The notes beneath the pieces were generated by a model. It ran no database searches. It was not told the DNA's origin and was given only the letters and a program-made list of their open reading frames with translations. The translations under genes and the position numbers were made by a program. From Marchantia polymorpha subsp. ruderalis (taxonomy: Eukaryota; Streptophyta; Marchantiopsida; Marchantiales; Marchantiaceae), in NCBI GenBank assembly GCA_037833965.1, contig AP031355.1, positions 9,449,501 to 9,513,500 of the forward strand: DNA of 64,000 bases, in the 5' to 3' direction. Shown piece after piece: positions 2,984-64,000 of this stretch (position 1 is its first letter; every line of letters begins with the position of its first letter).

Positions 2984-3126
2984 CAAGGTAGAGACAGCGA
3001 GCGGAGCAGTCCGGCGCGCAGGAGGCGCAACACCGGATCCGCCGAGTGCAGTAGTATAGTTTGGTTTCGCGCAGATGTTGCGAGTAGTAGATAGGATAGC
3101 GTAGTGCTAGTTAGGACCTTTGAGGG

Positions 3127-3155
3127 TATAAAGTAGATCAAGGCGTTTTGCCTTG
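3127..3155 (+). promoter_or_regulatory. LTR TATA box and adjoining hairpin
   Basis: TATAAAG at 3127 is followed by CAAGGC, a GTTTT loop and GCCTTG (3139-3155). The same arrangement, TATA then a six-base-pair stem with the identical loop, occurs in every LTR here. In the young copies the stem is CCAGGC/GCCTGG, so one pair has changed on both sides. This is the likely core promoter of the element, with R and U5 downstream. Confidence 0.6.
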
Positions 3156-11505: not shown

Positions 11506-11536
11506 CTTGTTAAAATCTGCTGCAAAGATTGCGTCT

Positions 11537-31165: not shown

Positions 31166-31201
31166 CGTAGTGCAGTGTAGTGCTAGGAAGGACCTAGAAG
31201 G

Positions 31202-31229
31202 TATAAAATAGTTCCAGGCGTTTTGCCTG
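31202..31229 (+). promoter_or_regulatory. LTR TATA box and hairpin
   Basis: TATAAAA at 31202, then CCAGGC-GTTTT-GCCTGG (31213-31229). Same layout as at 3127, with a paired change in the stem. The 3' LTR has an identical copy near 44480. Confidence 0.65.
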
Positions 31230-32198
31230 GGGTTCTTTCCCAAACTCAGAAGTATAGATCAGGAACCCATTTCCTTTGCGTGTTTGTGTCCTTGAGTTCT
31301 GTCACCACGCACGAGGAGTTACAACTTAGCGTTCCGCATTTTGTAGCTGAAGGCCTTCGGCCGAATGTTCAGAGCTAGTATATTGGTTAGAGACTTGAGT
31401 AGTTCGGAATTGCACCTGCGGGTGACTGCCGATGCTCAGAGCCAGTGACTAGTTAGATACTTGAACAGTTTCGCCCCTACACCTTCGAGTGTTTCTTTCT
31501 GATTGTACTCCTTTGGGATTTTTCCCCTGAATGCCAAAGTGAAGTTTTGCTACTTCGTGTAAGCCTTGGTTGTAAATTCAGGTTACGCTGCAGCAGGTGC
31601 CTTGAGGGTAACCCCTGTAGTATTTCTGGGAATGACAAGTGCCTGAGAATTCAAACTCTTCAATAGACTGTTGTTGTGTTACTGGAATGTTTCACAGTGA
31701 GTCCTTCAGTGCGGACCTGTGTTCTCTGTGCGTTTTGTGAGTTGAGAATGTTGTTCACCGCGTCTGAGTGACTTCGATCCGAAGTAGGTAGTCCAAACCG
31801 GGTTTCCTACACTAGCAGCAAGCTAGTGGAAGCGTTGTAAAAGCCGGAGTTGGAAGTCACTGCCCGCAGCTTTGCCGAGTGTGCTCGTGAGAGACTTTCC
31901 CCCTGAAATCTTGAAGTAGAGGTCCTAACGGATCTCTGGGTTGTGTTTCTGTAGTTTCAGGTGTGTGTGTGTGTGTGTTACGCTGCACTGTGCGACCTCC
32001 GAGTGCGCTCCGAGTGGACACTTGCAGTATTTCTGGGAGTGACAGTCGCCTGAGAATTCAAACTCCTCAATAGTCTGTTAAAACGTGACACTTTGTACCC
32101 TGTGTGTTCCTCTGTCCCTGTGGGTTCGACCTTTCTACCACTATATTGCAGTTTTAGCCTTTAGTGGGTTATTACATAAGAAGCCGACAACTTCTTTT

Positions 32199-32216
32199 TG
32201 GCGCCGCTGCCGGGGA
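32199..32216 (+). other. Primer-binding site, tRNA-Asp type
   Basis: TGGCGCCGCTGCCGGGGA is complementary to the 3' end of plant tRNA-Asp (TCCCCGGCAACGGCGCCA) apart from one base. It begins 23 bases after the LTR end. Confidence 0.85.
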
Positions 32217-32262
32217 CAGTTGCGTCAACACCGGGGTTTTTACGAGCAGCCATGCTCGGTGA

Positions 32263-35100: not shown

Positions 35101-35103
35101 ACT

Positions 35104-40991: not shown

Positions 40992-41015
40992 GTGTTCGCG
41001 TGGGCGCTCACAATT

Positions 41016-41026
41016 GAGGAGGGGGG
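41016..41026 (+). other. Polypurine tract
   Basis: GAGGAGGGGGG lies just before the 3' LTR (starts 41029) and would prime plus-strand synthesis. The mirror-image tract is next to the 3' LTR of the minus-strand element (about 58296-58306). Confidence 0.85.
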
Positions 41027-41028
41027 CA

Positions 41029-44000
41029 TGTGGTACCCCACTTTTGGCAATTTTGAGGAAATTAAAACATTTTTGAAAAACTGTACCCTGGCAGCATTGT
41101 AAATAGCCTTCGGTACATCAAAACAGAGTGAATCCGGAAGATCGCGGGGATTCTCGAGGGATCTTGTAGAATCTGGGATTTGGGGTGCCGCAGTAAGGAC
41201 AGGCACCACCCTCCCTGCGAGCTCCGCAGTTAGGATCTCTACGGCGCAAGGCGCAAAACCCGCCTTCGGAGGTTGCGTCCGCGGCTGTAGGGAAGCCCCC
41301 GTAATTAGGTCAACCCTTGGGCGCCTTGACCAAGTTAGGGTCCCGTTGGAAAGAGCTCGACGCGCTGATTCTAACGAGCTCAAGAACGCTTGGAACGGAC
41401 GAGGACTTAGGGAGTTATCGCTACTGGAAGAAACGGAGGCGGTCGCCTACGGCGGAAGGAGTTCGCCACCGGCGCGAATTCCGCCTACGCGGAAGGGGGA
41501 TTCAAGTTTTGTCCTATGCACGGACGAAGGCGTTCGCCTGTGCACAGGCGAAGTAGGGTTAGGGAAGGCGCGAAGTCCGCCTACGCACAGGCGTACGCCT
41601 GTGCACAGGCACTTCGGCGTCGCGGAAAATCCGCCTTGGGCCCTAGAAATGCGCCTTGTGAGGTAGAAAGTGTACGGCGCCTTCCGCGCCAGCGCAGCGC
41701 CGCGTACGTCGGAAGAGCCGCCAGAGTAATCCAACAGGTACGGACCGTGCGGACGGCACGGGTGGATGCGCTCTTGGACGGACGGAGTTGCGGCGGCGGA
41801 AGCGCCGACGGAGAGACAAGGAACGGACAGACTGGACGGAGACGGCTGACCACGGTCAACGCCTTCCGCGCCAGCGCAGCGCCGCGGACGGAATTCGCAT
41901 GCGCACAGGCGAACGCCTGTGCACAGGAGGATGTTCAAGTTCCGCGCCGGCGGAGAATCCGCCGAGGCCCCTGCCTGCGCACAGGCAGGAGTTGAATTTT
42001 TGTCCGACATGCGGACACACGCGTCAAGGCAGAAGGAGATTGGCCGAGGGGCGGTACGAACAAGTGTACCGCGCAAGGCGGAAAACTCGCCTTCGGCGCT
42101 ACGCCCCCATGTCCACAGGGTGACACGCTCGCGGAGTTCAAATCCGCCAATTCGAGCGTGAGAGTTTAATCGACGACGGCGGAGCGTGAAGCCGCGCGTG
42201 AGAGCGAAGACCGTTCCAGCGTACAGCCGGCGCGGCCATCAAGTGAGACGTTCTTCACGACCAAGAGCCGACCATGACCTTCGACCGGGCGGCGGAGAAC
42301 GTCCCATTCTTGAATTCGCGATTCCAATCTCTTGTGCGCGCTGCGCGCATCCATCTGCTGGCTGCGGACCATTCTCGACGTCGTCACACAGGAGATTTCT
42401 TATTGATTGAGGGAGAAGTGAGTGCGCGTGATTTGGAATTGAGAGCGATTAGAGTTTGCCGAGAGAGAAAGAAACGCGGACAGTGCGGAAGTAGAATGAG
42501 CGGGCGAGCGAACCCCAGGAACGCAATGACGAGACCGAGCAGATTGCGGATGGTGCCACTTCGCCTGCCGCAGAACGGGCCACGCTGCAACCTCGTCGGG
42601 AGAGAGGCCGCCTACGGGCCAAGGGCCTCCGGAGTTACCACGTGCGATGCGGACAGATGTTCCGTTTGCGCACAGGCGAACCTCCGCGGACGGACGAGCC
42701 TCCGCGGACCGGCGAACACAAGTGGACGTGGATCTACGCTTACGCGTGGGAAGGAGCAGTCCGCCTGTGCACAGGACACCTCCACATGTGCCGCCTGTGC
42801 ACAGGCAAGAATCACCCCCGTTCCAACGCAGGAAGGGGAAGGAGCCGGCGGAAGAACCGCCTACGAGACACCGGCCCTCGGGGCCAGACCCTCCGGCGCA
42901 CCACGCGCCGCAATTTGCGCCTTCGGCGCCAGGGCCTTCGAGCCGAGGAGATACGAGCAGAGAGCGTGCGGAGGCCGCACCATCGGCGGGAAGTCCGCCG
43001 ATAGATGCGCCTTCGGCGGTAGGGCCTATAGGCCAAGGAACATCGGGCGTGCGGCCCCCGGCCATGTCGCCTTCGGCGATAGATGTCCGCGGCGCTACGC
43101 CTGCGACGGACAAGGCGCCGGCAAATGCGCCTGCGCACGGGCCGGGCACAGCCCCCACGGACCGATCGAGGGAGCAGCAGACGGAGGAGCGGAGTGACTG
43201 TCCGCGGGATGAAATCTCGATACGCAATGCGCAATCCAACCCCCCGCAGCCACCCTCCGCTCAATCGCCTTCGGCGACGGACGACGGCGACAGAGAGAAT
43301 GCGGTAGGCAATCAACCAGCGAGCGACGGGGATGCCGCTCGGATACATTCGCCTTCCGCCTTAGACATTTTGGCGACGAGCAGCGAGGCTGCAGCCGTGC
43401 CTTCGCAGGCAGCACACGTCGAGGACGTGCAGCCCCACTCGGGGCAGTCGCCGACACAATCAATGGCGACTGAAATTCTCCACTCGGATGATGACGACGG
43501 AGGCTCCACGGAAGAAATGTCAGGAGCAGAAGACACCGAGGAGGAGGAGGAGGAAATTGTTGGAGCGCCGGCGGCGGCGCTCTCTGAGCAGGTGATTCCG
43601 TTGCTGCGGTACTTGGATCGCAAGGTCGATAAATACGCCGACCCACTCCAGCCGGGATCTTACATCGAGTTAGTGCGCAGGCGGACTCGCACTAAAGTCC
43701 ACACCAGCAAGCTATTAGTTAGAGTGGACCAGGAGTTGAGGGACTTGAAGGAGAAGCATGAGTGCTTGTGGGGACAGTACAAGCTTAATCAGAAATTCTA
43801 CAAGCACTCCGAGAAGATGAAGGATGAGAAACTGGGCGAGCTCACCAAGGAGCAGGTGAAGGTCAAGGAAGCACTCGATTCTGAGCAGGCCCAGAATCGG
43901 ATTTTGTCAGAGGAGCTCGTGCGACAGACGCGGTTGTTGGAACAATGTCAGCTCGCACGGCAGGCGGATGAAGAATTAATCCGCAGTTTGCAGTCAGAGT

Positions 44001-45454
44001 GTGGCGAATTGAGAGCGCAACGTGCTGAAGCCGAATCGCAATTAGTGACGATTGAAGAGGATCGCAGGAAGGAGGCGGATCGCACGAAGGTGGAGACGGC
44101 GAGGCGAGTCGCCCACTGTCTCAAGGGCTACGCCCATTGGGAAGTGAAGGCGCAGGAGAAACTCACACTGCGTGAGTTTGAATTGCGCGCAGCCGGGTTG
44201 TTGTCAGGCGACAGTAGGAGTCGGCGGAAGGTAGCGAAGAAGCTCGAGGCCTTTCTGTCGAAGGCACAGGATACCATGTCCGCCCTCGAGGGGGAGGTGT
44301 CCGCGGCGTTGCAGCGGTTGGGACTGCGTAGTCGAGCGGAAGAGTGGCAGGGTAGGGAGTTAGTGCGCGGCAGTCGGCCGCGTAGGAGACGTAGTACAGG
44401 TTCCGCGGAGTGTAGTGTAGCGTGGTTCCGTGCAGGCGTGTAGCGTAGTGCAGTGTAGTGCTAGGAAGGACCTAGAAGGTATAAAATAGTTCCAGGCGTT
44501 TTGCCTGGGGTTCTTTCCCAAACTCAGAAGTATAGATCAGGAACCCATTTCCTTTGCGTGTTTGTGTCCTTGAGTTCTGTCACCACGCACGAGGAGTTAC
44601 AACTTAGCGTTCCGCATTTTGTAGCTGAAGGCCTTCGGCCGAATGTTCAGAGCTAGTATATTGGTTAGAGACTTGAGTAGTTCGGAATTGCACCTGCGGG
44701 TGACTGCCGATGCTCAGAGCCAGTGACTAGTTAGATACTTGAACAGTTTCGCCCCTACACCTTCGAGTGTTTCTTTCTGATTGTACTCCTTTGGGATTTT
44801 TCCCCTGAATGCCAAAGTGAAGTTTTGCTACTTCGTGTAAGCCTTGGTTGTAAATTCAGGTTACGCTGCAGCAGGTGCCTTGAGGGTAACCCCTGTAGTA
44901 TTTCTGGGAATGACAAGTGCCTGAGAATTCAAACTCTTCAATAGACTGTTGTTGTGTTACTGGAATGTTTCACAGTGAGTCCTTCAGTGCGGACCTGTGT
45001 TCTCTGTGCGTTTTGTGAGTTGAGAATGTTGTTCACCGCGTCTGAGTGACTTCGATCCGAAGTAGGTAGTCCAAACCGGGTTTCCTACACTAGCAGCAAG
45101 CTAGTGGAAGCGTTGTAAAAGCCGGAGTTGGAAGTCACTGCCCGCAGCTTTGCCGAGTGTGCTCGTGAGAGACTTTCCCCCTGAAATCTTGAAGTAGAGG
45201 TCCTAACGGATCTCTGGGTTGTGTTTCTGTAGTTTCAGGTGTGTGTGTGTGTGTGTTACGCTGCACTGTGCGACCTCCGAGTGCGCTCCGAGTGGACACT
45301 TGCAGTATTTCTGGGAGTGACAGTCGCCTGAGAATTCAAACTCCTCAATAGTCTGTTAAAACGTGACACTTTGTACCCTGTGTGTTCCTCTGTCCCTGTG
45401 GGTTCGACCTTTCTACCACTATATTGCAGTTTTAGCCTTTAGTGGGTTATTACA
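41029..45454 (+). repeat. 3' LTR of the element
   Basis: Nearly identical to 27718-32176, with one palindrome cluster shorter. Same termini. Its U3 would be at the 3' end of the genomic RNA, directly after pol. Confidence 0.95.
42274..44443 (+). CDS. U3 reading-frame region in the 3' LTR (shortened variant)
   Basis: Counterpart of 28963-31165, with a 598-codon open frame (42647-44443) ending in the same coiled coil. It lies about 1.3 kb after the end of pol, in the 3' LTR copy that would be carried in the element's RNA. Broken as a full-length gene; function unknown. Confidence 0.55.
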
Positions 45455-47280: not shown

Positions 47281-50200
47281 TGTAATAACCCACTAAAGGC
47301 TAAAACTGCAATATAGTGGTAGAAAGGTCGAATCCACAGGGACAGAGGAACACACAAGGTACAAAGTGTCACGTTTAACAGACTATTGAAGAGTTTGAAT
47401 TCTCAGGCGACTGTCACTCCCAGAAATACTGCAAATGTCCACTCGGAGCGCACTCGGAGGTCGCACAGTGTAGCGTAACACACACATACACACACACACA
47501 CCTGAAACTACAGAAACACAACCCAAAGATCCGTTAGGACCTCTACTCAAGATTTCAGGGGGAAGGTCTCTCAAGAGTACACTCAGCGAAGCTGCAGGTA
47601 GTGACTCCCAACTCCGGCTTTTACAACACTTCCACTAGCTTGCTGCTAGCGTAGGAAACCCGGTTTGGACTGCCTACTTTGGATCGAAGTCACTCATACG
47701 CAGTGAACAACACTCTCAACTCACAGAACGCGCAGAGAACACAGGTCCGCACTGAAGGACTCAATGAGAAACATTCCAGTAACACAATAAAAGTCTATTG
47801 AAGAGTTTGAATTCTCAGGCACTTGCCATTCCCAGAAATACTACAGGGGTTACCCTGAAGGCACCTGCTGCAGCGTAACCTGAATTTACAACCAAGGCTT
47901 ACACGAAGTAACAAAACTTCACTTTGGCATTCAGGGGAAAAATCCCGAGAGAGTACAACCAGAAACAAACACTCGAAGGTGTAGGGGCGAAACTATTCAA
48001 GTATCGAACTAGTCACTAGCTCTGAGTTTCGGCAGTCACCCGCAGGTGTAGATCCGAACTACTCAAGTCTCTAACCAATGTACTAGCTCTGAACATTCGG
48101 CCGGAGGCCTCCAGCTACAAAATGCGGAACGCCAGGTTGTAGCTCCTCTTGCGTGGTGACAGAACTAAGGACACAAACACGCAGAGAAAATGAGTTCTTG
48201 ATTTGCACTTCTGAAATTGGGAAAGAACCCAAGGCAAAACGCCTTGAACTACTTTATACCTTCTAAGTCCTAACTAGCACTACACTGCACTACGCTACAC
48301 GCCTGCACGGAACCACGCTACCCTACACTCCGCAGAACCGGTGCTTCGTCTCCTGCGCGACGGACTGCCGCGCACTAACTCCCTACCCTGCCAGTCTTCC
48401 GCTCGACTGCGCAGTCTCAAACGCTGCAACGCCGCGGACACCTCCACCTTGAGGGTGGACATGGTATCCCGCGCCTTCGACAGAAAAGAGTCTAACTTCT
48501 TCGCCACCTTCCGCCGACTCCTACTGTCACCTGCCAACAACCCGGCTGCACGAAGCTCTAACTCACGCAGTGTGAGTTTCTCCTGCGCCGCCACTTCCCA
48601 GTGGGCGTAGCCCTTGAGACAGTGGGCGACACGCCTCGCCATCTCCTCCTTCGTGCGATCTGCCTCTCGCCTGCGATCATCTTCAATTACCACCAACTGC
48701 GATTCGGCCTCCGCACGCTGCGCTCTCAATTCCCCGCACTCCGACTGTAGCCTGCGGATTAAATCCTCATCCGCCTGTCGTGCGAGCTGACACTCCGCCA
48801 ACAACCGCGTCTGTCGCACGAGCTCCTCTAACAGAATCTGATTCTGAGTTTTCTCAGAAATCAATTCTGTCGTAGTCTTCACCACATCCCTGGTGAGCTC
48901 TTCCAGTCTCTCCTTCTTCATCTTGTCGAGGGCGTGTGATTTCCTCACAAGGTTGTACTGACCCAACAAACAGGCATGCTTCTCCCTCAATTCCTTCAAC
49001 TCCTGGTCCACCCTAGCTAGTAGCTTGCTGGTGTGGACTTTAGTGCGAGTCCGCCTGCGCACTAATTCGATGTAGGATCCCGGCTGGAGTGGATCGGCGT
49101 ATTTATCAAATTTGCGATCCAAGTACCTCAGTATTACCTGCTCAGAGAGCGCCGCCGCCGGCGCTCCAACAATTTCCTCCTCCTCCTCCTCGGTATCTCC
49201 TGACCCCGACATTGCTTCTGTGGAGCCTCCGTCGTCATCATCCGAGGGAAGGATTTCAGTCGCCATTGATTGCGTTGGCGACTGACCCAAGTGGGGCTGC
49301 ACGTCGTCTACGGGTTCTGCCTTCGAAGGCACACCTGCAGCTTCGCTGCTCCCCGCTAAAATGTCCAAGGCGGTGGGTGAATGTGGCCGTGCTACACCCT
49401 CATTGCCCGCCTGTCGATCGTCGACTGTATCCTCTTCGCCGCCGAAGGCGATCGAGCGGAGTGTGTCTGCGCGGGGTGTAATTGCGCATCGCGCACCCGA
49501 ATTTCGTCCCGCGGACAGACAGTCCGCTCCACCGTTAGGTCCTGCTCCCTCGATCGGTCCTGCGCGAAGGCTGTGTCTGGCCTGTGCGCAGGCACAAATA
49601 CCGGCGCCTTGTCCGCCGCAGGCTCAGTGCCGAAGGCGTCTATCGCCGAAGGCGACATAGCCGGAGGTCGCTCGCCCGATGTCCCTGGCCCCGAAGGCCC
49701 TACCGCCGAAGGCACATCTACCGGCGGATTACCCGCCGAAGGGGCGGTCTCCGCACGCTCCCTGCTCACATCTCGTTGACCCGAAGGCCCTGGCGCCGAA
49801 GGCGCAAATCGCGGCGCGTTGTACGCCGGAGGGTCTGGTCCCGAAGGGCCTTGATCCGTAGGCGGATCTTCCGCCGGCTCCTTCCCCTTCCTACGTTGGA
49901 CCGGGGGTGAATCCTGCCTGTGCGCAGGCGAACGCCTGTGCGTAGGCGGACTTTCTCTGCCTACGCGTAGGCGTAGGTCCACGTCCGCTTGGGGTCGCCT
50001 TTCCGTTGAAGCTCGCCTGTGCGCACGCGGAACACTCGTCCGCATCGCACGTGGTTACTCCGGAGGCCCTTGGCCCGAAGGCCGCCTCTCGTCCGTCGGA
50101 GGTGCAGCGTGGTCCGTCGCTCCTGCAGACGTCCGCACTCCCTCGTTTCTCCCCGGCGACGCACTCCCTTTCTCCGTGGCAATCGTCGCCGTGTCCGCGC

Positions 50201-52551
50201 TGCTGGCTGCTAACACAAGCCTGCGCGCCTTCTGCTTCGGTCGGCTGCACACTTCGTGCAATGGCCGCTGTCGAATGGGAGCAGTGGGTTCCCGGTGCTG
50301 CTCCTCTTCAGACTCCTCTCTCCATCGACGCTTCCGCGGCACTCTTGCTGCGGGTGTGTTTCTTCCCTCGTCCCTCCGCCTCGGTGGAGTAGAAGCTGGT
50401 GACTCCTCTACGTCGGTGTCGACCTCGTTATCCCGCACATACTTCCCGGGATGGTCGACGGACAATGGCGGAAAGCGAGCAAGCTCCTCCGCGGTCAAAC
50501 AATTTCGTTGTCGATAAAAATTGATCAGGAAAGGGGAGAGGTGATTGAGAGTTCCCCCCTTCTCCTCAAACGCGTGTTGCCGCATCACTCTGTGCAGGAT
50601 GCTCGCCCAGTGAATTGGAGCTCCCTCGATGATGAGCTCCACAAAAGAAACCTGCCACAATGTGATGTAGCAGGCGCGGTGTGGCTGCAGTAATTGCAGC
50701 AGTGCCGTCGCCACAGTACGGCGGAAGCGATCTTTGTAGTCGCGGGTCTTGTACCCATTCTTGGTAGACCTCTCCCGCTTGAACAACTCCACAAATTGCG
50801 CCTCGTCATGCTTCGACACCTTGACGCTCTCACTATCAAAGAGGAGGTGCCCTGGGATGCCGGCACACCTTCCCAATGCCTGCGCCCAATCTTGGACGGT
50901 CCACCGATCAACATGGGGACGCAATCCGCGCGAAGGTGGTCGCTGTGGCTCCAGCCACTCGCGCACCATATCCACACAAATGTAGTTCCATCCCCATAGC
51001 AAGATTTTGAGCTTTCTTGCAATCAGCCGTTCCTCGTAGGCGCACAACCCGTTCTGTGGAAGCCGGAGCGGCAGCATCCGCAATCGGTTCAGCTTCGACA
51101 TTGCGTTCTTGGAATTCGCTTGCTCGCTAATTCTCTCTCTGCTCCGCTCGAGCTCCTTGCTCCCTCGGCAAACTCTAATCTCACTCAATTCCAAATCGCG
51201 CGCACTCAATTCTCTCTCAATCAACAAGTAATCCTCTGCGCGGCGATGTCTGGAATGCTTAGCAGCTAGCAGATGGACGCGCGCAGCTCGCACTAGAAAA
51301 TGGAATCGCGAATTCAAGAATGGGGCGCTCTCCGTCTCTCGGTCGAAGGTCATGGTCGGCTCTTGATCGTGAGGGTCGAATCACTTGATGGCCGCGCCGG
51401 CTCTACGCTAAAACGGTCTCCGTTCTCACGCGCGGCTTCACGCTCCGCCGACGCCGATTTTACTCACACGCTCGAACTGGCAAATTTGAACTCCGCGAGC
51501 GTACTACGCTGCGGACATAGGTGCGCAGCGCCAAGGCGTCTTTTCCGCCTTGCGCGGTACACTCGTTCGTACCGCTCCTCGACCAATCCTCCTCCGCCTA
51601 AGGCGATCGTCCGCGCATCGGACAAAAGTTAAACCCCCGCCTGTGCGCAGGCGGAATCCCCGGCGGAATCTCCGCCGACGCGGAACTTCACCCGCCTGTG
51701 CGTAGGCGCTTGCCTGCGCGTAGGCGAATTATGTCCGCGTTGCTGCGCTGGCGCGGAAGGCGTTGACCGCGGTCAACAGACTCCGTCCAGACTGTCCGTC
51801 TCTTGTCTCTCCGTCGGCGCTCTCGCCGCCGCAACTCCGTCCAACCAAGAGCGCATCCATCCGTCTTGTCCGTACAGTTCGTACGGTCCGTACGGATTTC
51901 ACTACTCCGGCGGTTCCTCGTCCGTCCGCGCTGTTGCGCTGGCGCGGAAGGCGCCGTACAATTTCTACCTCCGAAGGCGCATTTCTAGGGCCGAAGGCGG
52001 ATTTCCCGCCGACGCCTTAGCGCCTGTGCGCAGGCGATCGCCTGTGCGTAGGCGACATTCGCGCCTACGTCAAAACCCTATATCGCCTGTGCGCAGGCGG
52101 ACTGCTTTCGTCCGCGCATAGGACAAAACTTTCTTCGCCTGTGCGCAGGCGGAAAGCTGAGTATCTTGCGACCTTCATAACTCCCGGGGTCCTCATCCGT
52201 TCGTGGCGTTCTTGGGCTCGTTGGAATCAGCGCGTCGAGCTCTTTCCAACAAGACCCTAATCAAGTCGAGGCGTTTGGAGATTGACCCAATTCTGAAGGA
52301 TTCTTCTAGCGCCGAAGGCGGATTTTGCGCCTCGCGCCGAAGGGATCATACCTTCAGAGCTCGCAGGGAGGGTGGTGTCCGTCCCTGACGTTGCACCCTA
52401 CTCCTAGATCCTACGAGTTCCCGTGAGAATCTCTGCGATCTTCCGAATTCACTCTGTTTTGATGCACCGAAGGCTATTTACACTGCTGCCGCGGTACAGT
52501 TTTCCAAAAATGTTTTAATTTCCTCAAAAATACCAAAAGTGGGGTACCACA
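47281..52551 (-). mobile_element. Solo LTR, 5.27 kb, minus strand
   Basis: Both termini are present (TGTAATAACCCAC at 47281, GGGGTACCACA ending 52551), flanked by ATTTT on both sides, with no internal region, so it is a solo LTR left by LTR-LTR recombination. It carries the full-size U3 with its reading-frame region and palindrome clusters (for example 52021-52160). It is more diverged from the young element than the element at 52931 is, so probably older. Confidence 0.93.
48295..51353 (-). CDS. U3 reading-frame region in the solo LTR
   Basis: From MTFDR at 51353 a 432-codon frame covers the N-terminal domain (LLWGWN, RTRDYKDR, GTLNHLSP, basic VPRKRRW); a 217-codon frame covers the linker, and a 357-codon frame (49368-48295) the coiled coil with HCLKGYAHWEV. 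The region is broken a few times. It confirms the domain order of the full-size U3 protein. Confidence 0.6.
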
Positions 52552-52930: not shown

Positions 52931-55900
52931 TGTAATAACCCACTAAAGGCTAAAACTGCAATATAGTGGTAGAAAGGTCGAACCCACAGGGACAGAGGAA
53001 CACACAGGGTACAAAGTGTCACGTTTAACAGACTATTGATGAGTTTGAATTCTCAGGCGACTGTCACTCCCAGAAATACTGCAAGTGTCCACTCGGAGCG
53101 CACTCGGAGGTCGCACAGTGCAGCGTAACACACACACACACACACACCTGAAACTACAGAAATACAACCCAGAGATCCGTTAGGACCTCTACTTCAAGAT
53201 TTCAGGGACAAAGTCTCTCGCGAGCACACTCGGCAAAGCTGCGGGCAGTGACTTCCAACTCCGGCTTTTACAACACTTCCACTAGCTTGCTGCTAGTGTA
53301 GGAAACCCGGTTTGGACTGCCTACTTCGGATCGAAGTCACTCCTACGCGGTGAACAACACTCTCAACTCACAAAACGCGCAGAGAACACAGGTCCGCACT
53401 GAAGGACTCACTGTGAAACATTCCAGTAACACAACAACAGTCTATTGAAGAGTTTGAATTCTCAGGCACTTGTCATTCCCAGAAATACTACAGGGGTTAC
53501 CCTCAAGGCACCTGCTGCAGCGTAACCTGAATTTACAACCAAGGCTTACACGAAGTAGCAAAACTTCACTTTGGCATTCAGGGGAAAAATCCCAAGGGAG
53601 TACAATCAGAAAGGAACACTCGAAGGTGTAGGGGCGAAACTGTTCAAGTATCTAACTAGTCACTGGCTCTGAGCATCGGCAGTCACCCGCGGGTGCAGAT
53701 CCGAACTACTCAAGTCTCTAACCAATGGACTAGCTCTGAACATTCGGCCGAAGGCCTTCAGCTACAAAATGCGGAACGCTAAGTTGTAACTCCTCGTGCG
53801 TGGTGACAGAACTCAAGGACACAAACACGCAAAGGAAATGGGTTCCTGATCTGCACTTCTGATGGGAAAGAACCCCAGGCAAAACGCCTGGAACTATTTT
53901 ATACCTTCTAAGTCCTACCTAGCACTATACTGTACTACGCTACACGCCTGCACGGAACCACGCTACACTACACTCCGCGGAACCTGTACTACGTCTCCTG
54001 CGCGGCGGGTTGCCGCGCACTAACTCCCTACCCTGCCAATCTTCCGCTCGACTGCGCAGTCCCAAACGCTGCAACGCCGCGGACACCTCCACTTCGAGGG
54101 CGGACATGGTATCCTGCGCCTTCGACAGAAAAGCATCGAGCTTCTTTGCTACCTTCCGCCGACTCCTACTGTCGCCTGACAACAACCCGACTGCGCGCAG
54201 TTCAAACTCACGCAGTGTGAGTCTCTCCTGCGCCTTCACTTCCCAGTGGGCGTAGCCCTTGAGACAGTGGGCGACACGCCTCGCCGTCTCCACCTTCGTG
54301 CGATCCGCCTCCTTCCTGCGATCCTCTTCAATTATCACTAATTGCGATTCGGCCTCAGCACGTTGCGCTCTCAATTCGCCACACTCTGACTGTAACCTGC
54401 GGATTAACTCCTCATCCGCCTGCCGTGCGAGCTGACATTGTTCCAACAACCGCGTCTGTCGCACGAGCTCCTCTGACAAAATCCGATTCTGGGCCTGCTC
54501 AGAAATGAGTGCTTCCTTGATCTTCACCTGCTCCTTGGTGAGCTCGTCCAGTTTCTCATCCTTCACCTTCTCGGAGTACTTGTAGAATTTCTGATTAAGT
54601 TTATACTGACCCCACAAGCATGCATGCTTCTCCTTCAATTCCCTCAACTCCTGGTCCACTCTAGCTAACAGCTTGCTGGTGTGGACTTTAGTGCGAGTCC
54701 GCCTGCGCACTAACTCGATGTAAGATCCCGGCTGAAGTGGGTCGGCGTATTTATCGACCTTGCGATCCAAGTACCTCAGCAACGGAATCACCTGCTCAGA
54801 GAGCGCCGCAGCCGGCGCTCCGACAATTTCCTCCTCCTCCTCCTCGGTGTCCTCCGCTCCTGACATTTCTTCAGTGGAGCCTCCGTCGTCATCATCCGAG
54901 TGGAGAATTTCAGTCGCCATTGATTGCGTCGGCGATTGCCCCGAGTGGGGCTGCACGTCGTCGACGTGTGCTGCCTGCGAAGGCACGGCTGCAGCCTCGC
55001 TGCTCTTCGCCAAAATGTCTAAGGCGGTAGGCGAATGTGCCCGTGCGGCATCCCCGCCGCTCGCTTGTTGGTCGTCTACCGTGTCCTCTCTGCCGCCGAC
55101 GCCCGCCGCCGAAGGCGATCAAGCGGAGGGTGGCTGCGCGGGGTTTGATTGCGCATCGCGCATCGAAATTTCATCCCGCGGACAGTCACTCCGCTCCTCC
55201 GTCTGTTGCTGCTCCCTTGATCGGTCCGTGGGGGCTGTGCTCGGCCTGTGCGCAGGCGCAAATGCCGGCGCCTTGTCCGCCGCAGGCGTAGCGCCGCGGA
55301 CATCCATCGCCAAAGGCGACATGGCCGGGGGCCGCTCGCCCGATGTCCCTTGGCCTATAGGCCCTACCGCCGAAGGCGCATCTATCGGCGGACTACCCGC
55401 CGATGGTGCGGCCTCCGCACGCTCCCTGCTCGTATCTCCTCGGCTCGAAGGCCCTGGCGCCGAAGGCGCAAATTGCGGCGCGTGGTGCGCCGGAGGGTCT
55501 GGCCCCGAGGGCCGATGTCTCGTAGGCGGTTCTTCCGCCGGCTCTTTCCCCTTCCTACGTTGGAACGGGGGTGATTCTTGCCTGTGCACAGGCGGCACGT
55601 GTGGAGGTGTCCTGTGCACAGGCGGACTGCTCCTTCCCACGCGTAAGCGTAGATCCACGTCCACTTGTGATCGCCTGTCCGCGGAGGCTCGTCCGTCCGC
55701 GGAGTCTCGTCTGTGCGCAAACGGAACATCTGTCCGCGACGCACGTGGTAACTCCGGAGGCCCTTGGCCCGTAGGCGGCCTCTCTCCTGTCGAGGTTGCA
55801 GCGTGGCCCGTTGCTCCTGCGGTCGTCCGCGCTTCCTCATGCTTCTCTGGCGACGCACTTCCTTTCTCCGTCGCAATCGTCGCCGTGTCCGCACTGTCGG

Positions 55901-58293
55901 CTGGTAACACCAGTCTGCGTGCCTTCTGCTTCGGCCGGCTGTATGACTCGTACAGCGGCCGCGGTCGAATGGGAGCAGAGGGTTCTTGATGCTGCTCCTC
56001 TTCGGACTCTTCTCTCCATCGCCGCTTCCGCGGCACTCGTGCTGCAGGAGTGTTTCTCCCTTCGTCCCTCCGCCTTGATGGGGTAGAAGTCGGTGACTCC
56101 TCTGCATCAGTGTCGACCTCATTCTCCCGCACATACTTCCCGGGATGGTCGACGGACAATGGCGGAAAATGCTCAAGCTCCGCCGCTGTCAAACAATTCC
56201 GCTGTCGATAAAAATTGATGAGGAAAGGAGAAAGATGGTTTAGAGTTCCCCCCTTCTCCTCAAAAGCGTGCTGTCGCATCACCCTGTGCAGGATGCTCGC
56301 CCAGTGAATTGGAGTTCCCTCGATGACGCACTCCACAAAAGAGACCTGCCACAATGTGATGTAGCAGGCGCGGTGTGGCTGCAGTAATTGCATCAGCGCC
56401 GCGGACAAAGTCAAGCGAAATCGATCCTTGTAATCACGGGTCCTGTACCCATTCTTGGTAGACCTCCCGGTCTTGAACAGCTCCACAAATTGCGCCTCTT
56501 CCTGCTTGGTCACCTTGATGCTCTCACTGTCGAAAAGGAGATGCCCTAGCATGCCAGCACATCTTCCCAACGCCTGCGCCCAATCTTGGACTGTCCACCG
56601 ATCAACATGCGGACGCAATCCGCGCGAGGGTGGTCCCTGTGGCTCTAGCCACTCGCGCACCATATTCGCACAGATGTAGTTCCATCCCCATAGCAAGAAA
56701 TCGAGCTTTCTTGCTATTAAGCGCTCCTCGAAAGCGCGCAGCCCGTTCTGTGGTAGGCGAAGTGGCACCATCCGCAATCTGCCCGGTCTCGTCATTGCGT
56801 TCCTGGGGTTCGCTCGCCCGCTCATTCTACTTCCGCACCGCCCGAGCGCCTTTCTCTCTCGGCAAACTCTAATCGCCCTCAATTCCAAATCACGCGCATT
56901 CACTTCTCCCTCAATCAACAAGAAATCTCCTGTGCGGCGACGTCGAGAATGTTTAGCAACCAGCAGATGGATGCGCGCAGCGCGCACAAGAGATTGGAAT
57001 CGCGAATTCAAGAATGGGACGCTCTCCGCCGCCCGGTCGAAGGTCATGTCGGCTCTTGCTCGTGGAGAACGTCTCACTTGATGGCCGCGCCGGCTCTACG
57101 CTGAAACGGTCTCCGCTCTCACGCGCGGCTTCACGCTCCGCCGTCGTCGATTAAACTCTCACGCTCGAATTGGCGGATTTGAACTCCGCGAGCGTATTAC
57201 CCCGCGGACATGGGGGCGTAGCGCCGAAGGCGAGTTTTCCGCCTTGCGCGGTACACTTGTTCGTACCGCCCCTCGGCCAATCCCCCTCTGCCTTGACGCG
57301 TGTGTCCGCATGTCGGACAAAAGTTCAACTCCTGCCTGTGCGCAGGCAGACTCCTCGGCGGATTCTCCGCCGGCGCGGAACTTGAACATCCTCCTGTGCA
57401 CAGGCGTTCGCCTGTGCGCAGGCGAATTCCGTGCGCGGCGTCGCGCTGGCGCGGAAGGCGTTGACCGTGGTCAGCCGTCTCCGTCCAGTCCGTCCGTTTC
57501 TTGTCTCTTCGTCGGCGCTTCCGCCGCCGCAACTCCGTCCGTCCAAGAGCGCATCCACCCGACCCGTCCGCATGGTCCGTACAGATTTGATTACTCCAGC
57601 GGCTCTTCCGCCGTACGCGGCGCTGCGCTGGCGCGGAAGGCGCCGTACACTTTCTACCTCACAAGGCGCATTTCTAGGGCCCAAGGCGGATTTTCCGCCG
57701 ACGCCGAAGCGCCTGTGCACAGGCGAACGCCTGTGCGTAGGCGGACTTCGCGCCTCCTCAAACCCTACTTCGCCTGTGCACAGGCGAACGCCTTCGTCCG
57801 CGCATAGGACAAAACTTGATTCCCCCTTCCGCGTAGGCGGAATTCCCGCCGGTGGCGAACTCCTTCCGCCGAAGGCGACCGTCTCCGTATCTTCCAATAG
57901 TGATAGCTCCCTAAGTCCTCATCCGTTCCGAGCGTTCTTGGACTCGTTGGAATCAGTGCGTCGAGCTCTTTCCAACGAGACCCTAGCTTGGTCAAGGCGC
58001 CCGAGGGTTGACCTAATTATGGAGGACTTTCCTACCACCGCGGACGCAACCTCCGACGGCGGGTTTTGCGCCTTGCGTCGTAGGGGTCCTAACTGCAGAG
58101 CTCGCAGGGAGGGTGGTGCCTGTCCTTACTGCTGCACCCCAAATCCTAGATTCTACAAGATCCCTCGAGAATCCCCGCGATCTTCCGGATTCACTCCGTT
58201 TTGATGTACCGAAGGCTATTTACAATGCTGCCAGGGTACAGTTTTCCAAAAATGTTTTAATTTCCTCAGAATTGCCAAAAGTGGGGTACCACA
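52931..58293 (-). repeat. 3' LTR of the minus-strand element
   Basis: Termini TGTAATAACC and GGGGTACCACA, 5363 bases. R and U5 match the young plus-strand LTRs closely. The extra length against those is in the U3 reading-frame region. Confidence 0.94.
53940..57047 (-). CDS. Full-size U3 reading-frame region, best-preserved copy
   Basis: The longest open stretch is 652 codons (57077-55119; likely start MTFDR at 57047). It is followed in the same orientation by a 357-codon stretch (55013-53940). It shows an N-terminal domain of about 330 residues (LDFLLWGWN, W-x-VQDWAQALGRCAG, RTRDYKDRFR, HWASILHRVMRQHA, GTLNHLSPFLINFYR), a basic patch (VPRKRRWREE) that could be a nuclear signal, a Pro/Ser/Arg linker, an acidic run (TEEEEEE), then the coiled coil. 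The coiled coil carries RYLDRK, HCLKGYAHWEV, TLREFELRA and GDSRSRRKVAKKL. There is no enzyme, membrane or signal sequence that I can see. The N-domain may be related to the 'putative plant transposon protein' families; I cannot check. It ends just before the LTR TATA box. Confidence 0.65.
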
Positions 58294-58330: not shown

Positions 58331-61161
58331 TCACATGTGGTATTTCTTCAACCGCCACCCGTTCACTCGGGTGCCTAACAAATCGCCGGCCAGGTCCGCA
58401 AGTTGGATGGATCCATTCGGGAAGACTTCGACAACCCTGTAAGGTCCCATCCACCTTAGGTGCAGTTTGCCTGGGAATCTGGCATGCCTGCTGTCGTAGA
58501 GCAATGCCAAATCACCCGCCTGCAGGAGTACCGGTTTGATCTTCTTATCGTATCTCTCCTTTCGGCGGAGCTGGATTTTCTTGGTGCGATCTTCGGCGTC
58601 TCTTCTCCTCTCATCCAGCAGCGTGACTTCCTGTAACCTGTAGAGCTGACTCTCCTCTGCGCCCATCCTCTGCAAATCCAACGTTCGTTGGGTGGGTACT
58701 TCAAATTCGATCGGGAGGATCGGGTGTTGCCCATACACCAGAAAGTATGGTGTCTGTTTGGTCGTGATCTTCTCAGCTGTGCGGTACGCCCATAGAGCGG
58801 CTGCTAGCTTCGTATCCCAGTCGTGAGCGTGATTCACCGTGACCTTGAGTAGTATTTTACACAGCAGACCATTGGACTTCTCCGTCAGTCCATTTGCCTT
58901 GGGATTGTAGGGAGTAGTCTTCCGGTGCTTGATGTGGAAATACCGTGTCAGATCTTCGATGATCTGATTCAGAAAATGCGTGCCCCGGTCGCTGACTAGC
59001 TCTAAGGGACATCCGTAGCGTGTGATGATCGACTCAAACAAGAATGCTGCCACTGTGGCAGCATCATCCCTTTGGTGGCTCTGGCCTCTACCATTTTGGT
59101 GGCGTAGTCCGTTGCTACCAGAATGTAGCGCCTTCGTGTACTTCTAGTCACTGGTTGTATCGGCCCTACAAAGTCAATACCCCACTTTTCGAAAGGTGCC
59201 AGAGGCATGATGGGAGTCAGGGGCCAGCGTGTTGTAGGCGTCGGTCTCCCCGTCCTCTGGCAACTGTCGCACTTGCGGATGTAATCGAGAACATCCTTAA
59301 ACATGGTCGGCCACCAATACCCCGCATTTAGGATCTTTGTGACCGTGTTCCTGGTGGCATAGTGTCCACCCGCCTCCTCAGTATGCATCGCACTCACTAT
59401 TCTTGGTACCTCTGTTTCCTCCAGGCACCTGCATAAGCGCTCATCTGCCATCTTCTTAAACAAAACCCCCTGCTGGAGTTGGTACGGGCCTGCCTTATGA
59501 ATAAAGACAGTTCGCTGTTCCAAATCCATGCCTTCGGGGCACTGGAGGGTTAGCAGATATCGATACAGGTCGGCATAGCGGGACTCATGTCCTGCAGACA
59601 ACTGAAATAACTCTTCATCTGGAAAATCGTCCACCAATTCCTCCTCTGTCGGCTGGGTCCATAATCGGGACAAGTAATCCGCATTTTCGTGGTGCACCCC
59701 TTTTCTGGTCTGGACTGTGTAGGTGAACTCTTGTAGTAACAACACCCACCTGGCGATTCGACCGGATAGGTCGGCTTTCTTGACTAGGTGTTGCAATGCG
59801 TAGTGGTCCACATGGAACACAAACTCGTAGCAGATTAGGTAGTGACGGAACTTTTTACAGGAGTACACCATCCCCAACGCTTCTCTCTCCGTCGTGGTGT
59901 ACTTCCGCTCTGCTAGAGACAGCTGTCGGCTCGCGAAGTAGATCGGGTAGTCCTTTTTGTTGTCATCCTTTTGACTCAGTACTACACCGATGGCGAATGC
60001 CGAGGTGTCAACGTAAACATGGAATGGTCGATTCCAGTCTGGACTCCTTAGTACGGGAGCAGTCGTGAGTTTTGCTTTTAGAGCCTCAAATGCTGACTGC
60101 TGGTTCGCACCCCAAGCATAAGGCTCGTCCTTCTTCAACAACTTGGTCAGGTCCGCCGCCAGTATTGCATACATGTGTATAAATCTTCGGTAGTAGCCCA
60201 CATGACCCAGGAATGCTCGCAGCTCCCTTAGATTCGTGGGTGGCTCAAGCTCGAGTATAACCTTGACCTTCTCGATGTCCACCGCAATGCCGTCTGCCGA
60301 GACCCGATGACCCAACAAGATCCCACTAGTCATAAAGAAAAAGCACTTCTCGGGATGCAGTGATAAACTGCTCTCTCTACATTTATCGAAGGTCTGCTTC
60401 AAGTGACTTAGGTGTTCAGACCGCTTCCCAAAGACACAGAAGTCATCTATGAATATCTCCAGGAACTTCCTCATTTGTTCCTGAAAGATATTGGTCATCA
60501 TCCGTTGAAAGGTGGCAGGCGCGTTGCACAGACCGAAGGGCATCTTGTGGTATGCGTAAGTTCCCCAGTCGGTTGTGAACGTAGTTTTATCCTTGTCCTG
60601 TTCACGGATAGACACCTGATTGTAACCTGAGAACCCATCCAGGAAGCTATAACATTCATGTCCTGCGACATGGTCTAGAATGGCATCCGTGAATGGTAAC
60701 GGGTGATGATCCTTGCGTGTTGCTGCATTCAACTTCCGGAAATCCTGACACACTCGTATCTTACCCGTCAACTTCTTGGGTACGATAACAATCGGCGACA
60801 CCCACTCGCTGCTGAGCACAGGGTAAATAATACCAGCGCTCAAGTACTTATCTATCTCCTCTTTCACTAGCAAGGAGTACTTTGGGTTGAGGCGATACTG
60901 GCGCTGTCGTATGGGTACTGAGTCGTCCAGTAAATCGATACGGTGTTCCCCATACCGTGCGGGTATCCCCTTCATGTCTTCGATCTTCCAGGCAAAAACG
61001 TCGACATAATGGCTAAGGAAGGCCTGTACTTTCCTTAGCTCGTCTCCTTTCACTGCGCTTGATACCTTCAAGCACTTGCCGGGACTGAGTTGTACTTCGT
61101 GACAGTCACTAGGGTCAACAATGCCCTCAGTGTGACTCGTCTCACTCCTTCCCAGTCCCAC
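58331..61161 (-). pseudogene. Pol region of the minus-strand element
   Basis: The same domain order as the plus-strand copy: RT (FIDDF), RNase H, integrase zinc-binding region (HTEEAGGHYA then CDSC), integrase core with its D, D and E blocks (GIDFVGP, SDRGTHF, NGLTEKSN), and the GPY-type end. It is not split by a nested element. It looks almost whole, with about one break. Confidence 0.9.
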
Positions 61162-61170
61162 AGTTAATTG

Positions 61171-63377
61171 CTATTCGTCTTCCGGCTGAATAGCTTCCGG
61201 CTCTTCTTCTTCTCCCACCGAACAGCAGGCAACGAATCCCACGAAGTAATCGGATTCGGTACCACTGGAATCCGATCGCGCGGTCGACTCACTGTCCTCG
61301 CCCGATGTGTAACCTGCACTTGTCCATGGGGTCTCTCCTTCGTGCCTGACCCTATTCCAGGGCACCGTAATGGTTTTGGTCGGTTCCGAAGGATGAGGAA
61401 ACTTAAGGCGATGTCTTCGCCAATCACATCTGACTTGTGCACCATATAGCCATGGTCGCCCGAGCAGAACGTCATAGCCCTGCTTCATCATCGGTTGAAG
61501 GATGATATACGTCAACCGAAAGTCCGCACCCCCGATGGTTGTCTTGACATTGCGCAGCATACCTGCAGGCATTCTCCGCGTCTGATCCGCTAATCTCAAC
61601 ACACGCTTCGAGGGTTCGTATTGACTGAACCCCAAGGCTCTCGCTGTATCCTCCGTCATTATGTTGACTCCTGATCCAGAGTCGATTGGCACTCTGCGTA
61701 CACAACACCCTGCTATTTCCACATCGATCTCGGGTGGCCCTTGGTCTTCGCTCTCCACTTGATATACTTGAGAGGATGTGGATGCGCGCGGCTTCCGCGG
61801 ATGCCGTAGCGAAAGCATCAACATTCTCCGATACGTCTTATTGTCCTCCAAGAGCTGCTTGAACGTGATGTTCACTTTTCGACTCCCGAGATCTTCAACC
61901 AAGTCATAGTGGGCGCGTTGGGTCGCCGGGGTCGGCGACGCTCTGCGAGGTTCCACGGTGGCTGCCAACTTCGCCCCAAGGGAGGATGTCAAGTCTGGCC
62001 GCGGTGGGTCCTTTTGCGTGCGGATCGCTTCCTTCAACAGGTTGGCTACCTCGTTGCGGGTATCCGGAGCATAGTCCCGTTTCAGTAGGCGCACTGGCTC
62101 GTCCTCGACTGCTGTCTGGGGGCGCACTGCTGGTGCCTCCCGCGTAGCCGAAGACTTCCGAGCAGGTCGCGAGTCGGACTTGCTGGATGTCTTCTCCTTT
62201 CCTTTTCCCGTCCGGTCGTCGGGTCTCCGTTCGTGCTTGCGAGTGTCACGCTCTTGCTCCTTCGATTTCTTGGAACTACGAGTTTCGACCCGTGCGCACA
62301 TGACCTCTTCAGCCGGCCATTCTTCGTCTTCGCCATCCCCGTCTGAACCTACTTCGACCTGGTTAACTTGCACGTCCTCCTTGGCAGGAGTGTTCACAAA
62401 TCGTACCACTGGCCGAGGGACTGGTGGCTGATCACACTCTGGCGCAGTGTGCCCGACCTTCTTGCAATTACTACATGTCGGAGCATAATCGTTTCGCCTT
62501 TTTGGATGGGGACACTGCGGTGAGAAGTGCCCAACTTCCCCGCAATTATAACAAGCTCGCGGTGGCGGTGGGTCAAACGTCCCTGGAGGTGCTCTCCGCC
62601 TCACAGGTACCGTAGTGGCCCGATCCACCGGAATATATCGTGGGACTTGCATTGCTGAAACTGCAGGAGGGGTAGGAACCGACTGGACGGCGTAGGCTAT
62701 CTCTTCGCTAGCCTCTCCATAGTACTGAGGGTGCTCTCCATAGTACGGTTGCGCCCACTCTACTGCGTTGACTGGATATGACGGCCGGGTGGTAAGGCAC
62801 TCGGTGTTTGCATGTCCCACCGCCCCGCACGTAGTACACCATAAGTTCGCTCGCACTCTCCCGGGTGATTTTCTGCGATCATGCCCGCCTACCACTTGAA
62901 CCTTGAGATCGGCGAAGTCCTTCACAAGGGTCTCCATCTTCGAAGCTATATCTCCCGGCGCTCTGTCCGTAGTCACTCGTCGGATGCCCTTTTTCTTTGC
63001 TGACCCATGCTTCTTCCTCTTCTTCTCCTCCTCCGACGATGAGGTTTCCTCTTCTTCGGATGAAGAACGGTTCTCGTCCGAAGACGATTCCTCCGATGAC
63101 GGAGTTGTACCTCTATGTCGTCTTCGCCCTCCCTTCGGTTTTCGTTCCTTCGACTCCCGTCTCTCTCTCCCTCTTCGGTTGAGAGTGGAAGTTTCGAAGG
63201 CTTCTGCCGATGCAATCACATCCTCTATAGTGTCGCACTTGCTGCGTCGGCAAAAAGTCTCCATCTCCCGAGTTAAACCGGTCACGTACCAATCCACAGC
63301 TTGTTGTACCGAGAAAGGGGACCCTGGTCCTGTTTTCGGTATTCTGTCGAGGAGGTCCAGAAATCTCTCAGTGTAGT
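61171..63377 (-). pseudogene. Gag-protease of the minus-strand element, cut by an insertion
   Basis: It carries the three zinc knuckles, the basic linker and the DSGSG protease, nearly identical to 32263-35094. The junction to pol has the same UAG CAA UUA context. The N-terminal third is beyond the nested LTR. Confidence 0.9.
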
Positions 63378-64000
63378 TGTGGTAACACACTTTTTGTTTT
63401 TTTTGCAGAATTTAAACAATTTTAGAAAACTAGTACCAAAGCAGTGTTTGTAGCTAGAGAAGGGTACGCTAAATAGAGTGGATTGATGAGATCGTCACGA
63501 GGGCACCAAGAATCACGTAGTCGGATGTACCAACGCCAACATCTTCGGCGCCTTCGGCAAAAGCTCCTTTTTGAGGTGTCTCTACTCACGCGCCTCTAGC
63601 GTATAAGGAAGCTACGCTTCCGGCGCAGACACCTCAGGAGGGGGTTTTGCTAAAGACGTCAGGAGAAGGGCCCGGACCTCTAAAGGCATCCGACCATGAG
63701 TGCGCCTTCGGCGAAGCGCCGCTAGCGCGGAAAGGGAAAACCTTCATAACAATCGGGATACACGGTAGATCCAGTTGGTTGAAGTTGCATTAGAAAGAGC
63801 TCGGGACGCTCGTTCTAACGAGTCCAAGAGCGCCGGAGATGGATCAGGAATGGAGAAGTTATGAGCGTCGGAAAACTCGTAGTCGGACATGCGCCGTTCG
63901 CGCTAGGGTTCACAGCCGGAAAGGATTCCCGTACGCCCTCGGCGATGCGCCTTCGGCGGAATCACGCGCTCACAGGAGGAAACCAACTCAGAGTCGGAAG
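63378..64000 (+). mobile_element. Left end of a nested plus-strand LTR, runs off window
   Basis: It starts TGTGGTAACACACTTTTTG, a variant of the start of the solo LTR at 35484. The flanking GTAGT (63373-63377) is the expected target duplicate; its partner is outside. It contains the conserved U3 block (near 63786, AGCTCGGGACGCTCGTTCTA) once. Whether it is a solo LTR or a full element is unknown. Confidence 0.82.

What the first reader, a model, noticed from the sequence alone, without database searches (positions are those of the whole stretch)
53940..57047. LTRs carry a long protein frame in U3, upstream of their own promoter
All full-size LTRs here hold the same frame: conserved N-domain, basic patch, Pro-rich linker, acidic run and coiled coil, ending just before the TATA box. 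Transcription from the 5' LTR would place it at the 3' end of the genomic RNA, after pol. MMTV sag is encoded the same way, and the position matches the env-like frame of Athila elements, but here it is inside the LTR. A diverged subfamily (262-2983) keeps the domains with only about half the residues matching, which argues for selection. I know of no described plant LTR family with this layout.
Basis: partly seen in the sequence, partly recalled or inferred. Interest (0 to 1): 0.9.

Follow-up and report, generated by a model that had tools for sequence, protein, structure and literature searches.

The report
Liverwort retrotransposon gene inside its LTRs
A family of jumping elements in a liverwort carries a whole protein-coding gene inside its terminal repeats, just upstream of its own promoter; the gene looks selected and is intact in many copies, a layout known from a mouse retrovirus but one I did not find described in plants.

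Summary
Confirmed and extended. Every named protein relative is from Marchantia polymorpha. The LTRs are real: TG...CA ends, 5-bp target duplications, PBS, PPT. Their U3 holds a sense frame ending 35-39 nt before the TATA box. All window copies are damaged; the named one has one in-frame stop. Elsewhere in the same genome 42 of 68 and 49 of 150 scored copies of two subfamilies keep the whole frame. Of 20 fetched LTRs, chosen for long frames, 17 had both ends recognised, and in all 17 the frame lies inside the LTR. From a conserved Met (window 56795) the protein is 851 or 945-962 aa. Between window copies D and C dN/dS is 0.20 (N-domain) and 0.28 (C part); wrong frames give about 1.3. A third, decayed family has the frame followed by R-U5-like sequence in 4 of 6 loci, so the layout is old. 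No Pfam domain and no named relative outside Marchantia was found. No membrane segment was predicted, so I favour a nuclear accessory protein made from spliced RNA; this is inferred. New variant of the plant extra-ORF kind.

The parts
52931..58293 (-). LTR D, 3' LTR of the element whose pol lies at 59002-63390; carries the named frame
55119..56795 (-). U3 frame in D, N part from the conserved Met to the in-frame stop at 55119-55121
53940..55118 (-). U3 frame in D, C part (acidic run, charged C-domain) in the same frame, to its own stop
56106..56795 (-). conserved N-domain of the U3 protein in D
53897..53903 (-). TATAAAA box of LTR D, 39 nt after the frame's stop codon begins
53875..53891 (-). 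hairpin CCAGGCGTTTTGCCTGG just after the TATA box
47281..52551 (-). LTR C, solo LTR with target duplication AAAAT; frame broken by a stop and a frameshift
50412..51101 (-). N-domain in LTR C
27718..32176 (+). LTR A, 5' LTR of element A-B (target duplication GTCAT); about 930 bp of the frame deleted
41029..45454 (+). LTR B, 3' LTR of element A-B, same deletion; 10 substitutions and 33 gap columns from LTR A
35484..38534 (+). LTR F, solo LTR (target duplication ATCGT) inside element A-B, nearly without the frame
1..4051 (+). LTR E, diverged subfamily II copy, 5' end off the window; N part and C part of the frame in two different frames
550..1239 (+). N-domain in LTR E
32199..32216 (+). primer binding site TGGCGCCGCTGCCGGGGA, 22 nt after LTR A; tRNA-Asp type (tRNA sequence recalled)
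32263..35094 (+). gag, zinc knuckle and protease of element A-B
38550..39944 (+). reverse transcriptase and RNase H of element A-B
40017..40991 (+). integrase of element A-B, ending 37 nt before LTR B
41014..41028 (+). polypurine tract before LTR B
59002..63390 (-). zinc knuckle, protease, RT, RNase H and integrase zinc-binding part of the element ending in LTR D

Best explanation
Shown: a Ty3/Gypsy element family of (inferred host) Marchantia polymorpha carries in the U3 of its LTRs a sense gene of about 850-960 codons that bears the marks of purifying selection and is open in many young copies. Because U3 is copied from the 3' end of the RNA into both LTRs, the gene is present twice per element and once in every solo LTR. 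Inferred: it is expressed as the last gene of the RNA that starts at the 5' LTR promoter, probably through a spliced RNA whose 3' splice site lies about 10 nt before the ATG. Inferred and less certain: the product is a nuclear accessory protein (basic patches, acidic run, long charged proline-free C-domain, no membrane segment) that acts on element RNA or chromatin and can work in trans, so that copies lacking it still move. Rough odds: selected U3 gene 0.95; accessory rather than env role 0.65; nuclear RNA or chromatin role as stated 0.4. The confidence below is for the gene and its layout with an accessory role of some kind.
For: The frame lies inside the LTR in 17 of 17 fetched LTRs with both ends recognised, of 20 fetched and chosen for long frames; the integrase end lies directly before 8 of these LTRs and gag begins 84-87 nt after 7. 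Whole frames: 42 of 68 and 49 of 150 scored copies. dN/dS of D against C: 0.20 N-domain, 0.28 C part, 0.34 overall. Subfamilies I against II: N-domain 0.18 with dS about 2.1. Start context and TATA position shared between subfamilies. Frame followed by R-U5-like pieces in 4 of 6 loci of a third family. No membrane segment in 4 proteins; basic patches. Putative splice sites. Element A-B carries the same deletion in both LTRs, so it most likely moved with a broken frame.
Against: No RNA or protein evidence. No known domain and no usable fold model, so the function rests on composition. Low within-subfamily ratios come from copies ranked by protein score and lean low. Element A-B and solo LTR F show that the frame is not needed in cis. 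The linker is weakly constrained (0.50; 0.56 within subfamily II). The heptad test was not significant.
Confidence: 0.8

Rival explanations
1. Env-like or virion protein: the frame is the 3' extra ORF of Athila-type elements, swallowed by growth of the LTR, and serves a membrane or particle function.
For: Same order after pol and same sense as the env-like ORFs of OTA elements (PMC6317226, PMC7264820, passages); tRNA-Asp-type PBS as in Calypso and Diaspora (PMC1142308, passage); long charged C-domain.
Against: No hydrophobic window typical of a membrane segment in 4 proteins; no Pfam match to Athila ORF-1.
Confidence: 0.15
2. Stand-alone gene: a promoter in the first 1.3 kb of U3 drives the frame, so every LTR, solo ones included, is its own gene, as MMTV promoter P2 does for sag.
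For: Whole frames occur in solo LTRs with target duplications (4 among the fetched copies); 11 to 24 ATGs precede the conserved start in the LTR, which disfavours plain scanning from upstream; MMTV precedent (PMC9412291, passage).
Against: No TATA-like box in the U3 leader was shared by the five copies examined. TATA-less promoters were not tested.
Confidence: 0.25
3. Suppressor of host silencing: the protein counters methylation or small RNAs of the host.
For: Nuclear-looking composition; named relatives only in one species, and a fast linker, would fit an arms race.
Against: No homologue with such a role and no direct evidence.
Confidence: 0.15
4. Chance open GC-rich region, or a passenger sequence without function.
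For: Linker weakly constrained; GC-rich short palindromes fill the LTRs; deletion derivatives have moved.
Against: Frame lengths far above shuffles; dN/dS 0.20-0.28 in the two domains against about 1.3 in wrong frames; domains kept across three families.
Confidence: 0.03

Closest known systems
MMTV sag/naf, encoded in U3 of the LTR
   Same: A sense gene in U3, hence in both LTRs (PMC9412291, passages).
   Different: An animal retrovirus; Sag is a type II membrane protein (PMC11998498, passage). The proteins were not compared by sequence.
Env-like extra ORFs of Athila and other OTA elements (eORF-3'F)
   Same: Sense ORF after pol on the RNA; PBS of tRNA-Asp type (PMC6317226 and PMC1142308, passages).
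   Different: Described between pol and the 3' LTR; here inside the LTR, pol ending 37 nt before it. No Pfam match to Athila ORF-1, plant mobile domain or Transposase_28.
Retand antisense ORFs with the TRP28 domain
   Same: Extra protein near the 3' LTR, thought to bind DNA and regulate (PMC11963269, abstract and discussion).
   Different: Antisense and in the internal region; here sense and in U3.
CERV of Cer1 (C. elegans)
   Same: Accessory protein of an LTR retrotransposon from a spliced RNA; the model for the function I infer (PMC10309623, abstract).
   Different: No sequence comparison was made; nuclear location is shown for CERV only.
[not shown]
   Same: Tat-lineage elements without additional RNase H in both Marchantia genomes studied (PMC10508981, section 5); this family also shows none.
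   Different: That section does not mention a gene in the LTR; clade membership was not tested here.
Retrosat2 of rice
   Same: LTRs over 3.2 kb and one extra ORF (PMC3485330, abstract and passages).
   Different: [quoted passage not shown] the passages do not place it in the LTR.

Membership tests
LTR retrotransposon, Ty3/Gypsy | paired LTRs with TG...CA ends and target duplications, PBS, PPT | tested here: met
LTR retrotransposon, Ty3/Gypsy | gag, protease, RT-RNase H, then integrase | tested here: met
Chromovirus | chromodomain after integrase | tested here: not met
   no chromodomain at E 0.01 in the integrase frame 40017-40991, one element
Tat with additional RNase H | second RNase H domain | tested here: not met
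   only the native RNase H models match in the frames scanned; sequence beyond 63390 was not scanned
OTA superclade (Athila/Tat) | position in an RT tree | not testable with these tools
   no reference sequences at hand; the pol search of the genome did not complete
OTA superclade (Athila/Tat) | PBS of tRNA-Asp type as in Athila-type elements | tested here: inconclusive
   TGGCGCCGCTGCCGGGGA, one difference from my recalled tRNA-Asp complement, but 22 nt after the LTR against 5 bp in Diaspora and Calypso (PMC1142308, passage)
Athila env-like ORF | Athila ORF-1 domain | tested here: not met
   no match to it (E up to 10, HMMER filters on)
Athila env-like ORF | membrane segments | tested here: not met
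   no 19-residue window of 1.6 or more in 4 proteins; simple hydropathy only
MMTV sag-like layout | sense gene wholly inside U3 | tested here: met
   17 of 17 fetched LTRs with both ends recognised; TATA after the frame
MMTV sag-like layout | expression by splicing or a U3 promoter | not testable with these tools
   motifs only; no RNA data

The most novel reading that the evidence does not exclude
A plant retrotransposon lineage has evolved a complex-retrovirus-like accessory gene in U3, shared by at least three families of one host, that works in trans from many scattered LTRs, solo LTRs included, so that the LTR itself is a self-spreading gene that helps or steers the whole family.
Probability: 0.45. 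Interest if true: 0.85.

Novelty: new variant of a known kind. Interest (0 to 1): 0.73.

Why it matters
[quoted passage not shown] This one is recognisable across three families, is constrained, and sits where reverse transcription duplicates it, so each insertion, and each solo LTR left behind, carries a whole gene. Such LTRs should then be read as genes and not only as promoters, and gene sets may hold them as hypothetical proteins. Marchantia is a genetic model, so the role of a plant retrotransposon accessory protein becomes directly testable.

Tried and rejected
Chance frame: disfavoured. Known domain: Pfam and NCBIfam scans and PDB sequence searches of the U3 protein gave nothing near a curated cut-off (best Pfam E 0.025). 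Relatives elsewhere: three searches of a large protein database; 23 of 25 hits named M. polymorpha, 2 unnamed; 79 of 97, 18 unnamed; 98 of 118, 20 unnamed. In some searches only the candidates sharing most words were scored, and the method needs shared 5-residue words, so distant relatives in other plants are not excluded. Fold: two AlphaFold jobs gave mean pLDDT 40 and 44, so no fold search was run. The integrase dN/dS was dropped (11 stop-bearing codon pairs, a misaligned frame). The heptad statistic was not significant: 24 to 38 of 300 shuffles reached it. The tree is weak (10 of 17 inner branches open) and is not relied on. A genome-wide search for pol copies did not complete.

Literature: no plant LTR with an inner gene appeared in the listings of searches; these cover open-licence PMC papers and fixed words only, and most listed papers were not opened. 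In the review of plant extra ORFs (PMC7264820, passages) 'in the LTR', 'within the LTR' and 'inside the LTR' occur 0 times.
Full report
WHAT IS THERE. The window (G000:C6:9449501-9513500) holds several copies of one Ty3/Gypsy family. LTRs were delimited by mutual matches and by their ends, TG...CA with 5-bp duplications: A 27718-32176 and B 41029-45454 belong to one element (GTCAT); C 47281-52551 is a solo LTR (AAAAT); F 35484-38534 is a solo LTR inside element A-B (ATCGT); D 52931-58293 is a 3' LTR whose element runs off the window; E 1-4051 is a diverged copy whose 5' end is off the window. A primer binding site follows LTR A and a polypurine tract abuts LTRs B and D. Pfam finds gag, zinc knuckle, protease, RT, RNase H and integrase, and in the frames scanned no second RNase H and no chromodomain. 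The integrase frame ends 37 nt before LTR B, so there is no room for a gene between pol and the 3' LTR.

THE FRAME IN THE WINDOW. In D the frame covers LTR positions 1199-4351 with one in-frame stop after position 3172. C has a stop and a frameshift. A and B share a deletion of about 930 bp. E has the two parts in different frames. F has almost nothing of it. So no window copy is intact.

HOST AND RELATIVES. All named protein relatives are Marchantia polymorpha: 23 of 25 hits, 79 of 97, 98 of 118, the others unnamed. It has 241,466,482 bases in 9 contigs.

THE FRAME IN THE GENOME. The D frame scored 68 copies in the same genome (D itself among them): 60 without a stop in the matched part, 42 with a whole open frame of at least 1022 codons (tally). 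The E-type N-domain scored 150 copies (E among them): 119 without a stop, 49 of these with an open frame of at least 886 codons (tally). Only the best candidates are scored, so these are not genome totals and they lean towards good copies. I fetched 20 LTR regions, of the 218 rows of both tables, chosen for long frames. Both LTR ends were recognised in 17, and in all 17 the frame lies inside the LTR (5 LTRs of 5350-5395 bp, subfamily I; 12 of 4860-4877 bp, subfamily II). In the other three (L040, L042, L046) only the LTR start was recognised. Three LTR pairs and one triplet share 5-bp duplications at their outer ends, and four solo LTRs have theirs. The integrase end lies directly before 8 of these LTRs and gag begins 84-87 nt after 7; two are middle LTRs with both. 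LTRs of one element or array differ by 0 to 7 substitutions over 4872-5359 aligned bases. The gene is therefore present twice in young elements.

THE PROTEIN. From the conserved N-domain Met the protein is 851 aa in 10 of 10 subfamily II representatives and 945-962 aa in 6 of 6 of subfamily I (all chosen for open frames). This Met is the first in-frame ATG in 13 of 14 subfamily II copies. The parts are an N-domain of about 226 aa, basic patches (PRKRRW and RPKQKARR in subfamily I, similar in II), a Pro-rich linker, an acidic run, and a C-domain of which 225 aa hold no proline. No 19-residue window reaches 1.6 on the Kyte-Doolittle scale in 4 proteins. My heptad test was not significant, so 'coiled coil' stays a guess. 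Two AlphaFold runs gave no usable model.

SELECTION. Window copies D and C were not chosen for open frames. Between them dN/dS (Nei-Gojobori, bootstrap intervals) is 0.20 (0.13-0.31) in the N-domain, 0.50 (0.35-0.74) in the linker, 0.28 (0.20-0.39) in the C part and 0.34 (0.27-0.42) overall. The N-domain stretch read in the two wrong frames gives 1.36 (0.83-2.74) and 1.31 (0.77-2.28). D against A gives 0.37 (0.27-0.53). D against E gives 0.23 in the N-domain with dS about 1.7; dS of the C part is saturated (all). Subfamilies I against II give 0.18 in the N-domain with dS about 2.1, with the C part again saturated; within subfamilies the N-domain gives 0.09 (I) and 0.06 (II), the linker 0.37 and 0.56, the C part 0.19 and 0.29. 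In 7 and 20 copies not picked by frame length the N-domain gives 0.12 and 0.08, one of the 20 having a stop. The within-subfamily sets were ranked by protein score and so lean low. For scale, between the two window elements gag-pro gives 0.27 and RT-RNase H 0.09, from few changes (24 and 12). Two intact LTRs have sense frames of 891 and 1044 codons; 200 shuffles each reach at most 228 and 320.

AGE OF THE LAYOUT. A third family was found with P0207, an unnamed 484-aa frame with the same N-domain, linker and beginning of the C-domain. It is about 41% identical in the N-domain to a subfamily II-type copy in L056. Of its 20 best rows in the genome 19 contain stops: an old, decayed family. In 4 of 6 of its loci (L049, L051, L053, L054; L055 is a longer stretch of L049's place) the C-domain is followed on the same strand by pieces in the order of R-U5 at 73-85% identity; L050 and L052 do not show it. 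So the order frame, then R-U5, seems to predate the split of the three families. The LTR ends of this family were not delimited. L055 and L056 also hold LTRs of the other subfamilies.

HOW IT PROBABLY WORKS. In the five copies examined a TATA box begins 35-39 nt after the first base of the stop codon, and 11 to 24 ATGs lie between the LTR start and the conserved Met. A transcript from the 5' LTR thus carries the gene at its 3' end, after pol, and plain scanning is unlikely to reach it. In subfamily II a T-rich stretch ending in GCAG|G lies just before the ATG, in subfamily I CCCCAG|GAACGCAATG, and R-U5 holds GTAAGT (II) or GTGAGT (I) sites. Splicing would solve the problem, as reported for Bagy2 (PMC7264820, passage) and Cer1 (PMC10309623, abstract). 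This is inference from motifs. Lacking a membrane segment and having basic and acidic regions, the protein fits a nuclear accessory role better than env; Cer1's CERV, required for nuclear export of genomic RNA, is my functional model. Element A-B carries the same deletion in both LTRs, so it most likely moved with a broken frame; the function is then supplied in trans or is dispensable.

VERDICT. A real and selected gene inside the U3 of a liverwort retrotransposon family: a new variant of the plant extra-ORF kind with an MMTV-like layout. Its function is inferred.

Noticed in passing
53875-53891 (-) and fetched LTRs: A hairpin directly after the TATA box: CCAGGCGTTTTGCCTGG in 5 of 5 subfamily I copies, CAAGGCGTTTTGCCTTG in 11 of 12 of subfamily II, a compensatory change; in L039 one side has changed.
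   Followed up: partly
LTRs of the window: Short GC-rich palindromes are confined or nearly confined to the LTRs, in the U3 leader and in the linker of the frame: GCCTGTGCRCAGGC 20 of 20, GCCGAAGGC 19 of 19, GCCTTCGGC 21 of 25.
   Followed up: partly
27718-45454 and 35484-38534: Deletion derivatives of the frame seem to have moved: element A-B has the same gap in both LTRs, and solo LTR F is nearly without the frame.
   Followed up: partly
G000 contig C1 (5.6 Mb of 241 Mb): 8 of the 20 best rows of the decayed third family lie on this short contig; it may be a sex chromosome (guess).
   Followed up: no
G000 C4:14471500-14499840 and C5:20406040-20430101: LTR-internal-LTR-internal-LTR arrays with shared middle LTRs.
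   Followed up: partly
4052-5412 (-): An inverted piece of about 1.36 kb from the 5' end of an LTR abuts the end of LTR E, probably a nested insertion.
   Followed up: no
7176-11611: A cluster of tRNA-Gly (three), tRNA-Ala and tRNA-Ile genes in direct and inverted repeats.
   Followed up: no
24353-25385: A tandem array with a 61-bp period.
   Followed up: no
15759-18320 (+): A frame of 853 aa with leucine-rich repeats, like a plant receptor-like protein.
   Followed up: no
20095-22085 and 25814-27718: A duplicated stretch, 81-88% identical, about 5.6 kb apart.
   Followed up: no
protein P0082: A Marchantia gene model joins integrase residues to the U3 N-domain, as expected if pol runs into the 3' LTR; it may be an annotation artefact.
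   Followed up: no
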